Positions 476 through 5,990 of a DNA stretch of 42,909 bases are shown here, piece by piece. How positions within the stretch are numbered: the first letter of the stretch is position 1; every line of letters starts with the position of its first letter. The notes under the pieces were generated by a model that saw nothing but the letters and a program-made list of their open reading frames with translations, was not told the origin of the DNA and searched no databases. This DNA is from Prevotella sp. (GTDB taxonomy: Bacteria > Bacteroidota > Bacteroidia > Bacteroidales > Bacteroidaceae), in NCBI GenBank assembly GCA_017474515.1, contig JAFVHN010000029.1, forward strand, positions 1-42,909, given 5' to 3'. The position numbers and the translations under genes were made by a program.

Positions 476-1300
476 TTATTTTTCTGGAGGTATGATCAAG
501 TCAAAATTGTGCTTGCTGAAAATTTTCTCGATGGCCCTGTCGTCGGGCTGTTCTTCCAGGCACCAGGCAATGAAGTTGATAATCTCGTATGTCTGAATGA
601 CTTCCGCCTCTATCAGCATGGGGACAAACGATTCATAGTCTGAGCTGGCATAGGGGAGGTTGTCTGAGCGCGAAACCTCAAAATCCAGCAGCTCCAGCGC
701 CCATGTATAGTTCTGCGGGTGCATGGCATTGTGCATGATGTGGTGGTCGTGCAACACCCTGAGGTTGCCCACCAGGATGTCTGCGGCGCGAAGATGCCTG
801 CAGTGCCCTTCGCCGCCCCATTTCTGCACCGTTTTGACCAGCAGGCTTTTTGGCATGAAGCCAATGTCGCTTATACGGTAGGGGCACTCCACGGAATATT
901 GAAGCAGTGCCGCCTGCTTTTCTTCCCCGTTTTGGACGGTTGTCTTGTCGAGCGACAGTACGCAATGCATGCGGTTGGTCTTGATGCCGAGCCGGCGGAC
1001 CTCGTTTCCGATGTCGAAATCGCGCAGGGCATTGTCTAAAGACAAGCCTCCCCATGTCTCACTGTTGACGAGAGAGGTCAATAGCCGTGAGTGCGTGGTA
1101 TAGCTGAGGCCGTTTCCTTTCCCTATCACCCACTCGTCTTCGTGGTAGCGACACAACACGAAGCTCCGACCGTGGTTTGGGCTTATGCAGAAGATTTCCT
1201 TATCGCCATGCTCATCTCTTACGAATGGCAAGGCTTCACGATTGTATTCCGTTTCACGTACTGTCTGACAGGTGGTGCGCGAGGCTCTGAATTTTCTCAT
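476..1300 (-). CDS. Kinase-fold (SelO/APH-like) protein next to radical SAM peptide maturase
   Basis: This 274-residue protein is not a recognised named family. The N-terminal part has a GKGNGLSYT stretch followed by RRLGIKTNR, which resembles the ATP-binding region of SelO/YdiU proteins (KGxGxTP...LGIPTTR). Near residues 190-215 is HNAMHPQN followed by LLDFE, which looks like a kinase catalytic loop and DFG region. The usual Asp of HxDxHxxN is Ala here, so phosphotransfer is doubtful; SelO, an AMP-transferring pseudokinase, also lacks it. There is no signal peptide, so it should be cytoplasmic. It lies about 200 bp behind the 35-residue Cys-rich peptide gene and its maturase, on the same strand, with repeats and a hairpin between. 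A role in modifying the peptide, or in immunity to it, is inference. The repeat cassette AAAGTGAAGAGTGAAG lies directly upstream of the start codon. Confidence 0.72.
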   Translation of the reverse strand: MRKFRASRTTCQTVRETEYNREALPFVRDEHGDKEIFCISPNHGRSFVLCRYHEDEWVIGKGNGLSYTTHSRLLTSLVNSETWGGLSLDNALRDFDIGNEVRRLGIKTNRMHCVLSLDKTTVQNGEEKQAALLQYSVECPYRISDIGFMPKSLLVKTVQKWGGEGHCRHLRAADILVGNLRVLHDHHIMHNAMHPQNYTWALELLDFEVSRSDNLPYASSDYESFVPMLIEAEVIQTYEIINFIAWCLEEQPDDRAIEKIFSKHNFDLIIPPEK

Positions 1301-1444
1301 GGCAATTTAAAGTGAAGAGTGAAGAATGTCGAAGGTATCGCGAGCAAGTAACGAGAACGAAGTGGCAATTTGCTGCCGCGCATATTTCATAACTAAGAAT
1401 TCATAATTTAAAGCATTTTAACTCCTGAACTACAAAAGTAAAAG

Positions 1445-1490
1445 AGTGAAAAGGTGAAATAAAGAGTCCACTCTTTTTCACCTTTTCACT
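1445..1490. terminator. Inverted repeat between peptide gene and kinase-fold gene
   Basis: AGTGAAAAGGTGAAATAAAG on the left pairs, with small bulges, with the CTTTTTCACCTTTTCACT arm on the right, separated by only a few bases. It can form a long A/T-rich hairpin in either strand and could stop or attenuate transcription after the peptide gene at 1501. The arms are made of the GTGAAAAG words that recur as simple repeats across this window, so it may instead be two opposed repeat copies. Confidence 0.45.
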
Positions 1491-1500
1491 TTTCGCTTTT

Positions 1501-1608
1501 CTACTTGTTGTGTTTAACCAAGATGGTAGGGCACGAACATTGGTATGAGCATGCTGCCATGGCCACAACCTTCGACGCTTGTTTTGTCGATAAAACAATT
1601 TCTCTCAT
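1501..1608 (-). CDS. Candidate RiPP precursor peptide (35 aa, Cys-rich)
   Basis: This short gene encodes MREIVLSTKQASKVVAMAA followed by CSYQCSCPTILVKHNK, then TAG. The ATG is the only ATG start possible in its frame: an in-frame TAA lies seven codons upstream. It begins 5 nt after the stop of the radical SAM/SPASM gene, so the two are almost certainly cotranscribed and probably translationally coupled. A short polar/hydrophobic leader followed by a compact cluster of three Cys (C20, C24, C26) is the expected form of a RiPP precursor whose core is crosslinked by a SPASM radical SAM enzyme (sactipeptide- or ranthipeptide-like chemistry). There is no GG cleavage motif, so it does not fit the GG-leader Bacteroidales precursor family. 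The exact modification is unknown. The gene is too short for ordinary gene callers. Confidence 0.72.
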   Translation of the reverse strand: MREIVLSTKQASKVVAMAACSYQCSCPTILVKHNK

Positions 1609-1613
1609 ATCAG

Positions 1614-3203
1614 TCAGGTGTTTTGAAGGTTACAGGAATAGTTTTCGGACACTCCATTTATCCGCGCATCCTCCCTGTGGTTGACAGAAGGGGTGCGTCC
1701 AAACTTTCTTATTTCGCATTTTATTTCAGACAATGCCGTTTCCAAATCTTTTCCTTGCAGAGGGTCATAACCCTCTTGCATCTTTACGGCCAGACCATAT
1801 CGTTCCTTGGCCAGGAAGCAGTTGTTCTCAGAGGCCACCAAGGGGTTGCCGTGGGCAATGTAGTTGTTGCCCACACACATCTCGCAATAGGCGCAATAGG
1901 GGTGCTTATAGCAGTCGGCGCAGTCGCCGAGCGTCCGTCGGCGCCACCATTTCAGTTCCTTGTTGCCGTTCAGCAAATCAGAGACAGAGGTTTCCCTGAC
2001 GTTTCCCAGCTTCAGCGGGAAAGCACAACAAGGCTGCACGTTGCCTTCCGGGGTGATGCACAGCGTGTTGAGGCCGGCATCACACATGATGCCGCCTTCA
2101 TGTCTCACCATCTCTTTCACGCCGTCGCCGCTGATGTAATAAGAAAGGTCTTTGTCGCGTAAAACGATTTCCAGCTGCTCATGTTCCAGCCGCAGGAACT
2201 TCGACGGGCTGCGGTCGCCTTCCACGGAGTCCGTCACATTCAAGTCGAACTGTGGCAAGGCCCCATAGCGTCGGGCCACGGTTTTCACTGTGTGGTAGGT
2301 GGAAACGTTGGGTTTCATGATGCAGCACTTCAACAGCATCGGGAGGGCATAATCGCTGCATTCCGCTATGAAGGCGACGATCTTGTCGTGCGACCCCCTG
2401 ACGCGTGTGATAGAGTCGTGAACCTCCGGCACGTCGCTATAGAGCGAAATGCCGATGGTGCGGGGGTAATATGCGGCCAGGCGGCCCACGTCGCCTACCA
2501 CGCTAATGCCGTTGGTGAAAATGTCAACGGCAATCTCTTTGCGGTAGAGATAGTCCATGATGTCCCACACGATGTTTTTTGAGAATGGGTCGCCGCCTGT
2601 CAGGCACACCTTGGTGATGCCCATTCCCACCAGTTCGTCCAACAGCTTTTTATAGTCGTCCAGCGTCAGTTCTTTTCTCATTCCCCTTTTACTGGTCTCA
2701 TTATTGTTTCTTGCCGCCCCGGGGTTATAGCAGTGCATGCACCTCTCGCTGCAACGATAGGTCAGTTCCAACATCACGCTGGTGAGCCCCCCTACCCTCT
2801 CGCTGTATGCCCTTTCCGCGCTGGCGTTCCCCACTATGGTCATTTCATGCAGGGCGTTTATGCTGTCGGCCACCTGCTGTCTTCTTTCTGCTTTCAGAAG
2901 GCTGCGGCGCTCAGCTATCTCCTCCTGCGATGGCACCTTCCGCGTCAACAGCCCATAGCGTTCCAACTCCCCGAGGAAGGGGTCGAGGCAGTCCTCCCTC
3001 ACATCTGTCTGTTTTGAAAGCCCCCCCAGAGTGAAGGCGCTGTTCCTCTCCACCGACAGGATGCTGCCAACGACCTCTGCCGACACATCCTCGTAATAGA
3101 AACTCATTCCCTCTAACAGGTTGTACATTATGGCGGCACCGTGAGCCCTGTCGTACCGGCCGCAAGTCCATTCCGGACGGAAATAGTGTTTTTCCTTTAC
3201 CAT
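1614..3203 (-). CDS. Radical SAM/SPASM peptide maturase
   Basis: This 529-residue protein has the radical SAM [4Fe-4S] motif CSERCMHC at residues 151-158 and a glycine-rich LTGGDP at 201-206. A C-terminal SPASM domain carries Cys at 374, 382, 392/393, 428, 431, 437, 440, 443 and 462, enough for two auxiliary iron-sulfur clusters. Residues ~25-95 look like a winged-helix PqqD-like peptide recognition element. Such enzymes use S-adenosylmethionine radicals to crosslink or otherwise modify a peptide in the cytoplasm. The immediate downstream gene (1501-1608) encodes a 35-residue Cys-rich peptide, its likely substrate. The start at 3203 is the first ATG behind a TAATTTTG promoter box at 3226-3233. 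The alternative, an anaerobic sulfatase-type maturase, is less likely given the recognition-like domain, the adjacent peptide and the lack of a sulfatase. Confidence 0.88.
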   Translation of the reverse strand: MVKEKHYFRPEWTCGRYDRAHGAAIMYNLLEGMSFYYEDVSAEVVGSILSVERNSAFTLGGLSKQTDVREDCLDPFLGELERYGLLTRKVPSQEEIAERRSLLKAERRQQVADSINALHEMTIVGNASAERAYSERVGGLTSVMLELTYRCSERCMHCYNPGAARNNNETSKRGMRKELTLDDYKKLLDELVGMGITKVCLTGGDPFSKNIVWDIMDYLYRKEIAVDIFTNGISVVGDVGRLAAYYPRTIGISLYSDVPEVHDSITRVRGSHDKIVAFIAECSDYALPMLLKCCIMKPNVSTYHTVKTVARRYGALPQFDLNVTDSVEGDRSPSKFLRLEHEQLEIVLRDKDLSYYISGDGVKEMVRHEGGIMCDAGLNTLCITPEGNVQPCCAFPLKLGNVRETSVSDLLNGNKELKWWRRRTLGDCADCYKHPYCAYCEMCVGNNYIAHGNPLVASENNCFLAKERYGLAVKMQEGYDPLQGKDLETALSEIKCEIRKFGRTPSVNHREDARINGVSENYSCNLQNT

Positions 3204-5168: not shown

Positions 5169-5990
5169 TCATGGCTGCTCACCTGCCGGATGTTCCGGGG
5201 CGGGCAAACAGGCTTCAAAACGCTGTATCACGTCAATGAACTCCTTCGGGAGACGCGACAAGGCCTGCTGCCTGATTTTTACGGGGACACCATAGAAAGC
5301 GCCGGCCACGGCACCGGCCACGGCAGCTGCCGTGTCGGTGTCCTTGTTGGTCAGAACGGCCTTGAAAAGGCAATCCTCATAGCTTATGCTCTCGAAGAAA
5401 CATATTAACGCGGCAGGCACCGTTCCCTGACATGTGACGTCGAAAACATAGTCGGCGTTGTACAGGTCCAAATACGGGCGGTTCAGGTCATAGTCGAAGA
5501 GTTCCAGCAGTTTTGACTTGATTTGTTCTTTGGGCTGCCCCAGCCTGGCCATCAGTGTGGCAACCGCTATTGCCTGTGCTCCCTTGATGCCCTCTGGATG
5601 GTTGTGTGTGGGCATGGCGCTCTTCCTTGCCAGCGCCATGGCTTCTTCTATGGAGTTCGCCCAACAGGCAACGGCGCTCACCCGCATTGCCGACCCGTTG
5701 CCGAATGAGTTGTAAGGCCTTGGGGTGCTAGAGCGGCACCATCTGAGGAACATTCCGCCATATCCTATCCAATCATATTTCCTGCCATAAAGCAAGAGAT
5801 AATCCTGCAGACTGCTTCCCGGATGGCAGAGCCAGTCGGCAACGGCCATGGTCAGCACCGTGTCGTCGGTGTATTGGCATTGGCGGTCGAAGAACTTGAA
5901 GTGTTGTTCATCAACACCTCGGAATTCATAGGGCTGACCGATGATGTCACCGGCTATAGCCCCTATCATAGCGTCAATTCTGTTTCTCAT
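5169..5990 (-). CDS. ADP-ribosylglycohydrolase family protein
   Basis: A 273-residue protein of the DraG/ARH family, which removes ADP-ribose from proteins, nucleic acids or small molecules using two Mg ions. Visible motifs are GAIAGDIIGQPYE near the N-terminus, YTDDTVLT (metal-binding Asp pair), GNGSAMR, HNHPEGIKGA, and TNKDTDTAAAVAGAVAGAFYG near residue 225, which supplies the remaining metal ligands. All key acidic residues look present. No signal peptide, so cytoplasmic. The gene lies 91 bp behind the WG-repeat protein (6082-6909) on the same strand and could be the last gene of that unit. In such settings these enzymes can act as antitoxins or regulators, but nothing here proves it. Confidence 0.9.
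   Translation of the reverse strand: MRNRIDAMIGAIAGDIIGQPYEFRGVDEQHFKFFDRQCQYTDDTVLTMAVADWLCHPGSSLQDYLLLYGRKYDWIGYGGMFLRWCRSSTPRPYNSFGNGSAMRVSAVACWANSIEEAMALARKSAMPTHNHPEGIKGAQAIAVATLMARLGQPKEQIKSKLLELFDYDLNRPYLDLYNADYVFDVTCQGTVPAALICFFESISYEDCLFKAVLTNKDTDTAAAVAGAVAGAFYGVPVKIRQQALSRLPKEFIDVIQRFEACLPAPEHPAGEQP

What the first reader, a model, noticed from the sequence alone, without database searches (positions are those of the whole stretch)
476..3203. Candidate RiPP system with an unlisted 35-residue Cys-rich precursor peptide
A radical SAM/SPASM maturase with a recognition-like N-terminal domain (1614-3203) is followed after 5 nt by a 35-codon gene (1501-1608). Its product ends CSYQCSCPTILVKHNK, a compact three-Cys core after a short leader. 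A kinase-fold protein follows. The order maturase, peptide, kinase-fold protein does not match a RiPP class that I know. The peptide lacks the GG leader of the Bacteroidales families. The gene is short enough to be missed by standard annotation.
Basis: partly seen in the sequence, partly recalled or inferred. Interest (0 to 1): 0.88.

Follow-up and report, generated by a model that had tools for sequence, protein, structure and literature searches.

The report
New Prevotella radical-SAM peptide family
A tiny gene of 35 codons lies directly behind a gene for a radical enzyme of the peptide-modifying kind, and the pair recurs in related bacteria with a conserved front end and a variable, cysteine-bearing back end, which is what one expects of a family of ribosomally made, chemically modified peptides that has no name yet in the family libraries searched.

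Summary
The maturase (1614-3203, -), the 35-codon gene 5 nt behind it (1501-1608, -) and the protein after it (476-1300, -) are there. The small gene is real: 19 of 19 related loci with a complete maturase end carry such a frame (31-39 codons) behind the maturase, and silent changes outweigh replacing ones in all nine pairs tested. Leaders are alike (about MK..L..S.AS.V); cores fall into several types: a RiPP maturase-precursor pair by all sequence signs. Corrections: of the three core Cys only two are conserved in this type (C24 is Ser in the other three); two of 19 peptides have one Cys. New: a stable hairpin follows the precursor in 18 of 19 loci; one relative has three tandem precursor copies; the downstream gene varies. 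Eleven of 19 have the window's 476-1300 protein, a possible SelO-like pseudokinase without the kinase catalytic Asp; four have an M42 peptidase and a 320-residue protein instead, with a core subtype of their own. None of the 19 peptides matches NCBIfam.

The parts
1501..1608 (-). 35-codon precursor peptide gene MREIVLSTKQASKVVAMAACSYQCSCPTILVKHNK; leader about residues 1-18, core from about residue 19 (boundary inferred)
   Evidence: homologues behind the maturase in 18 further loci; purifying selection
1614..3203 (-). radical SAM/SPASM maturase, 529 aa
   Evidence: Pfam Radical_SAM and SPASM; CX3CX2C Cys 151/155/158 in 15 of 15 close-family sequences aligned (L089-L092 were not in that alignment)
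2904..3203 (-). N-terminal winged-helix, RRE-like domain of the maturase (residues 1-100)
   Evidence: winged-helix Pfam hits in some members of A8, none for the window sequence itself; hhalign against PqqD 22.8 over 39 columns, 0 of 200 shuffles reach it
2340..2768 (-). radical SAM domain (residues 146-288)
1908..2084 (-). SPASM domain as matched by Pfam (residues 374-432); further conserved Cys at 437, 440, 443, 462
1440..1494 (-). stable hairpin directly after the precursor gene, possible attenuator or mRNA-end structure
   Evidence: MFE -29.5, z -4.3 for the 80 nt after the stop; same place in 18 of 19 loci against 25 of 133 control ORF ends
476..1300 (-). 274-aa protein with kinase-like motifs, possibly a SelO-like pseudokinase; found behind the precursor in 11 of 19 loci
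   Evidence: kinase catalytic-loop match, best E 0.05; hhalign against SelO

Best explanation
The locus makes a RiPP. The 35-residue peptide is translated from the maturase operon. Its leader (L..S.AS.V) is bound by the winged-helix RRE-like domain at the N-terminus of the maturase. The radical SAM/SPASM part then installs cross-links in the Cys-bearing core, most likely Cys thioethers, because Cys is present in every core. The hairpin after the precursor gene probably keeps precursor mRNA more abundant than that of the accessory gene behind it. The accessory gene is interchangeable: here a possible SelO-like pseudokinase, which may transfer a nucleotide or phosphate to the peptide or bind it; elsewhere an M42 aminopeptidase with a 320-residue partner. 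Shown: gene order, conservation, selection, hairpin, and that loci with the M42 peptidase share a core subtype. Inferred: one operon, leader binding, cross-linking and its chemistry, the role of the hairpin and of the pseudokinase, and whether the product is secreted.
For: Small frame behind the maturase in 19 of 19 loci from 18 genomes, four of them in other families of the same order. pS>pN in 9 of 9 pairs. Leaders alike, cores of several types. Three tandem precursor copies in L008. In 18 genomes the 17 precursor-profile hits of E<=1e-6 lie beside maturases and no orphan copy was seen (those peptides built the profile, and a 34-position profile could miss remote copies). N-terminal domain resembles winged helices and PqqD. 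The maturase profile matches SkfB (8e-12), PqqE (3e-9) and 5wgg, that is CteB (2e-6), among solved structures, and AlbA (3.7e-22) in NCBIfam. At least one Cys in 19 of 19 peptides, two or more in 17 of 19.
Against: No modified peptide has been seen. L060 and L090 have a single Cys and L092 has CSC, so one common two-ring product cannot hold for all. An aromatic residue follows the first Cys in 18 of 19, so Tyr/Trp/Phe chemistry is not excluded. No transporter was recognised among the ORFs near the locus (read by eye, not searched). The kinase-like gene was not found in six loci and is broken in one, so it cannot be essential to the family. The winged-helix evidence comes from relatives; the window domain itself has no Pfam hit. 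The structure tool was off.
Confidence: 0.8

Rival explanations
1. The peptide is the source of a small redox cofactor or cytosolic peptide signal, in the way of PQQ or mycofactocin, and not a secreted bioactive peptide.
For: No transporter recognised near the locus (by eye); an M42 aminopeptidase stands behind the precursor in L032, L057, L058 and L059 (Pfam E 5e-77 to 5e-83); PqqE and the mycofactocin maturase are among the matches.
Against: The core varies between types, whereas cofactor precursors are expected to keep the converted residues (recalled); three tandem precursor copies fit a peptide product better.
Confidence: 0.22
2. The maturase makes carbon-carbon or other links at the aromatic residue (Tyr/Trp) and the Cys serve only as disulfide or metal ligands.
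For: An aromatic residue after the first Cys in 18 of 19; Y22 invariant in type 1, Y or W in the CGxxYR stretch of type 2.
Against: L092 has no aromatic residue after its Cys pair, and the place of the aromatic residue shifts between types, while Cys is in every peptide. The nearest solved relatives by profile include SkfB and CteB, thioether enzymes (chemistry of SkfB recalled, of CteB in PMC10352776).
Confidence: 0.25
3. The small frame is a leftover or regulatory frame and not a substrate of the maturase.
For: It is only 35 codons and matches no family.
Against: 19 of 19 loci, purifying selection, core types that follow maturase clades.
Confidence: 0.04

Closest known systems
Sactipeptide and ranthipeptide systems (AlbA, SkfB, CteB)
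   Same: rSAM/SPASM maturase with an N-terminal extension, short precursor with Cys next to it.
   Different: Maturase far below the curated cut-offs (AlbA 78.4 of 850 bits, SkfB 41.5 of 300); precursor has 1-3 Cys and is not a six-Cys SCIFF peptide; other accessory genes.
Bacteroidales GG-leader rSAM peptides (family definition recalled)
   Same: Host group, small precursor plus rSAM/SPASM enzyme.
   Different: No GG in the window peptide; no NCBIfam match for any of 19 peptides at E<=10.
SelO protein adenylyltransferases
   Same: Kinase-like motifs with the HRD Asp lost; in the profile alignment N197 and D206 stand opposite the Asn of TDN and the Asp of DYG; K61 is invariant. SelO has lost the HRD Asp and transfers AMP (PMC8097203, passages read).
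   Different: 274 against 478 residues in E. coli; no Pfam match for the window protein at E<=10; NCBIfam SelO only E 0.13; DFE in place of DYG; the Asp of TDN is Gln.
Lasso peptide kinases (ThcoK, BsfK and others)
   Same: A peptide-tailoring kinase in a RiPP cluster; known ones but BsfK act on a C-terminal Ser (PMC10368454, passages read).
   Different: Those are HPr-kinase-like with a G-rich GKS motif; the window protein has no GKS.
Pseudokinase that forms a nitrile in a marine toxin pathway
   Same: A precedent for a pseudokinase as tailoring enzyme in natural-product biosynthesis; seen only as a reference title inside PMC13060819.
   Different: Not read; relation to this protein untested.
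rSAM RiPP cluster BGC8 in the Bacteroidales survey PMC10352776 (passages read)
   Same: rSAM with RRE-like N-terminal domain and a precursor with two Cys.
   Different: Whether that maturase is a relative was not tested here.

Membership tests
RiPP (radical SAM/SPASM type) | short precursor gene beside the modifying enzyme, with conserved leader and variable core | tested here: met
   19 of 19 loci
RiPP (radical SAM/SPASM type) | CX3CX2C radical SAM motif and SPASM Cys | tested here: met
   C151/C155/C158 and C374, C392, C431, C440, C443, C462 in 15 of 15 close-family sequences, C437 in 14 of 15 (L089-L092 not included)
RiPP (radical SAM/SPASM type) | leader recognition domain (RRE) | tested here: inconclusive
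   winged-helix likeness in relatives and PqqD profile match over 39 columns; fold not predicted, binding not testable
RiPP (radical SAM/SPASM type) | post-translationally modified product | not testable with these tools
   needs expression and mass spectrometry
Sactipeptide (AlbA/SkfB) | maturase over the curated equivalog cut-off | tested here: not met
   78.4 of 850 and 41.5 of 300 bits
Sactipeptide / ranthipeptide | Cys thioether to alpha or beta/gamma carbon | not testable with these tools
   chemistry
SCIFF ranthipeptide (TIGR03973; definition recalled) | six Cys in a precursor of about 45 residues | tested here: not met
   1-3 Cys; no NCBIfam match
Bacteroidales GG-leader peptides (definition recalled) | GG cleavage motif, NCBIfam precursor model | tested here: not met
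   no GG in the window peptide; the dipeptide GG occurs in 2 of 19 (L058, L090); 0 of 19 match NCBIfam
SelO adenylyltransferase | family model match | tested here: not met
   no Pfam match at E<=10 for the window protein; NCBIfam E 0.13
SelO adenylyltransferase | remote profile likeness in register over the nucleotide-binding motifs | tested here: inconclusive
   9 sequences: score 26.5 over 155 columns, reached by 5 of 400 shuffles and by 1 of 60; 11 sequences: 26.8 but over 72 N-lobe columns only, reached by 1 of 500; reversed control 17.0, other alignments 10.9-16.8; hhalign probability only 3%; single E. coli sequence gave an unrelated stretch
Canonical protein kinase | HRD catalytic Asp | tested here: not met
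   Ala in 11 of 11 (HNA)
Lasso peptide kinase (HPr kinase-like) | G-rich GKS motif | tested here: not met
   no GKS in the window protein

The most novel reading that the evidence does not exclude
A family of RiPPs in which the maturase is constant while core and tailoring enzyme are exchanged together, one of the tailoring enzymes being a SelO-like pseudokinase that AMPylates or phosphorylates the peptide, in type-2 cores at the C-terminal Ser/Thr. For type-2 cores, 7 of 8 loci with the intact pseudokinase gene have Ser/Thr in the last two residues of the peptide (L089 has not), against 0 of 4 with the M42 peptidase (Fisher p 0.01, noticed after the fact, not corrected for kinship). Against it: the three type-1 loci with the gene, the window among them, end in NK or NQ, and kinase loci do not resemble each other in the core more than they resemble M42 loci (57 against 59%).
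Probability: 0.2. Interest if true: 0.85.

Novelty: new variant of a known kind. Interest (0 to 1): 0.7.

Why it matters
The precursors are 31-39 codons long and none of the 19 matches a curated NCBIfam model, so mining that starts from precursor models would not see them; the rules table of one rumen survey (PMC13289728, passages read) names such models for ranthi- and sactipeptides, though it also has general RRE and fall-back rules, which were not tried on this locus. The change of accessory gene on a nearly constant maturase gives natural pairs for asking what a pseudokinase does to a peptide. The main claim can be tested with a two- or three-gene expression.

Tried and rejected
Chance frame: rejected by conservation and selection. 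Third Cys as a conserved part of the core: rejected, C24 is Ser in the three other type-1 peptides. Genus-only distribution: my first reading after (1 of 345 phylum genomes, the window's own); corrected (5 of 295 order genomes, four in other families). Kinase gene as an obligate member: rejected (not found in L005, L057, L058, L059, L060, L090; broken in L032; unknown in L092, whose contig ends about 300 nt behind the maturase). Mobile on phage or plasmid: maturase and kinase alignments gave no confirmed relative in viral contigs; the kinase had no plasmid match at E<=1; the maturase matched 179 plasmid records, all under 60% identity, about 25% in the five rows shown. The kinase profile found 1 of 287 phylum genomes, the window's own. 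ADP-ribosylglycohydrolase upstream as a member: present in window, L005 and L007, not seen within 3 kb in L006, and L008 has only about 2 kb upstream before its contig ends, so undecided and left out. SelO: one E. coli sequence gave no useful match, the family alignment did; no SelO gene in 40 relatives. In-print check: searches; in the titles and abstract beginnings listed, and in passages of PMC10352776, PMC13060819 and PMC13289728, I saw no description of this gene set. Longer lists were not read, and most subscription papers are not in that library. The -2.2 mark for hairpins was set after seeing the 15 values; the rank test (p 3e-7) does not depend on it. The 133 control ends are mechanical ORFs of at least 150 aa, not curated genes. 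The pairs for the codon test were picked by hand among peptides of equal length.
Full report
What is there. The window is a whole contig (G000:C58) of a genome whose named relatives at this locus are uncultured Prevotella or Prevotellaceae. On the minus strand lie, in order of transcription, a 529-residue radical SAM/SPASM protein (1614-3203), after 5 nt a 35-codon frame (1501-1608), a hairpin (1440-1494) and a 274-residue protein (476-1300).

Is the small gene real. A search of named genome contigs with the maturase gave four loci. Three have an intact maturase end, and directly behind it L005, L006 and L008 have the frames MRNAVLEPKQVSTIVTMAACAYQSSCPTVLVKHNK, MKETVKLKTLNISCASNVVAMSACAYQSSCPTVLVKYNQ and MKEELKASKVSSVIEMNACAYQSSCPDVLVKFNQ, the last in three tandem, nearly identical copies. 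L007 cannot be used: its maturase breaks off. A profile of the 476-1300 protein was found in 11 of 398 genomes of the genus (two of the 11 are fragments) and a profile of the maturase in 23 of 398 at E<=1e-80, of which 14 are close family, one is cut by a contig end and eight are distant (about 30% identity). The order search gave 5 of 295, four of them in other families; the phylum search 1 of 345, the window itself. In all, 19 loci from 18 genomes have a complete maturase end (L005 and L025 appear to be two contigs of one genome, G257), and all 19 have a small frame behind it, 5-60 nt away in 18 and 189 nt in L057. In nine hand-picked pairs of equal length pS exceeds pN in all.

What the peptides look like. 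Type 1 (window, L005, L006, L008): CxYQ[SC]SCP[TD][VI]LVKxN[KQ]. Type 2 (L025-L030, L032, L057-L059, L089, L091): two Cys spaced CX7C followed by G and, three residues on, Tyr or Trp with Arg (CGIAYRSS and the like). Single forms: L060 (one Cys), L090 (one Cys), L092 (CSC). The front part is alike in most: MK..L..S.AS.V. A third Cys inside the core is peculiar to the window peptide; L006, L025 and L026 have a third Cys before the pair. At least one Cys occurs in 19 of 19, at least two in 17 of 19. No NCBIfam model matched any of the 19 at E<=10.

The maturase. In 15 close-family sequences (L089-L092 not included) the radical SAM Cys and six of seven SPASM Cys are invariant; C437 is Ser in L005 (sequence). 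The first 100 residues give winged-helix Pfam hits in some members (best 2e-5; none for the window sequence itself) and a profile match to PqqD over 39 columns that 0 of 200 shuffles reach. By profile the nearest solved structures are SkfB, PqqE and CteB. I infer leader binding by that domain and thioether chemistry in the core; neither was shown.

The hairpin. Eighty nt after the precursor stop fold with z of -2.2 to -4.7 in 15 of 15 loci (third copy used for L008) and with z of -3.1 to -4.7 in three of the four later ones; L090 is the exception (z -0.5), with a strong hairpin about 200 nt further on. Among 133 other ORF ends in the same loci 25 reach -2.2 (rank test p 3e-7 for the first 15). 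The sequences differ while the place is kept.

The protein behind it. It is intact in 11 of 19 loci: window, L006, L008, L025-L030, L089, L091. The window protein has no Pfam match. The family profile matches the catalytic loop of CDK and MAP kinases, best E 0.09 with nine and 0.05 with eleven sequences. Against SelO the nine-sequence profile aligns over 155 columns, from the Lys region to N197 and D206 opposite the Asn of TDN and the Asp of DYG, at a score that 5 of 400 shuffles reach; the eleven-sequence profile scores 26.8 over 72 N-lobe columns only, reached by 1 of 500 shuffles. hhalign's own probability is 3%. K61, N197 and D206 are invariant in 11 of 11; the HRD Asp is Ala in 11 of 11; E100, at the place of the helix-C Glu, is kept in nine of 11. 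SelO too has lost the HRD Asp and moves AMP instead of phosphate (PMC8097203, passages). I call it a possible SelO-like pseudokinase; the fold was not predicted.

Accessory genes change. L032, L057, L058 and L059 have an M42 peptidase (Pfam 5e-77 to 5e-83) and a 320-residue protein behind the precursor; L032 also keeps a broken kinase gene, and L008 has both the kinase and, upstream, the 320-residue protein. Among the eight most alike type-2 loci (of 12) the maturases are equally alike whether or not the accessory gene is the same (83.8 against 84.3%). The precursors are 79% alike among the four M42 loci, 57% among the four kinase loci and 59% across. So the M42 loci share a core subtype while their maturases are mixed with those of kinase loci in the tree (four of six inner nodes of that part have support of 71 or less); the kinase loci do not. 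Type-2 peptides with the intact kinase gene have Ser/Thr in the last two residues in 7 of 8, with M42 in 0 of 4; this was seen after the fact, and the three type-1 peptides with the kinase gene do not show it.

Verdict. A real, conserved precursor-maturase pair of the radical SAM RiPP kind, without a model in the libraries searched, with an unusual and exchangeable accessory protein. A new variant of a known kind. The parts that would make it more than that, pseudokinase tailoring and joint exchange of core and tailoring enzyme, are testable.

Noticed in passing
L062-L070: Distant maturases (about 30% identical), with MATE transporters beside them (Pfam MatE in the three tested: L063, L065, L066), go with another small-peptide family, MAKN(D/E)NPF.IRKSPV.II(S/T)AQAL.LDDYV..., found in 6 of 8 loci, up to three copies each.
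   Followed up: partly
L027-L030, L032, L058, L059, between maturase and precursor: The spacer is 46-48 nt and by eye nearly identical DNA; read in another frame it continues to RWVNVVPQEISL, like the in-frame maturase tail of L026, as if the stop had been moved by a frame change.
   Followed up: no
L008 3571-4019: Three tandem, nearly identical precursor copies, each with its own spacer.
   Followed up: partly
L007 about 6160: Maturase frame breaks off at residue about 395 into unrelated DNA; assembly error or real rearrangement.
   Followed up: no
L031 7229-7912: A kinase-like fragment in G028 without a maturase match in the stretch fetched, probably a remnant.
   Followed up: partly
L008 972-1949, L032 6642-7598, L057 7571-8524, L058 7218-8183, L059 3416-4375: A 320-residue protein, 64-68% identical to the L008 copy, without any convincing family match (weak U32 peptidase hint for L008, E 0.09).
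   Followed up: partly
window 5169-5990: ADP-ribosylglycohydrolase (Pfam E 3.8e-36) upstream on the same strand, also upstream in L005 and L007.
   Followed up: partly
L077: A SelO family protein beside a SagB/ThcOx family dehydrogenase on a Polaromonas plasmid, as annotated.
   Followed up: no
L005, maturase residue 437 (window numbering), and L005 7558-8529: A SPASM Cys kept in 14 of 15 is Ser in L005, the one type-1 locus where no kinase gene was found and where an IS1595-like transposase lies downstream.
   Followed up: no
L057 between 6169 and 6359: A second short frame without Cys (MANEQKEHDKKK...) lies between maturase and precursor.
   Followed up: no
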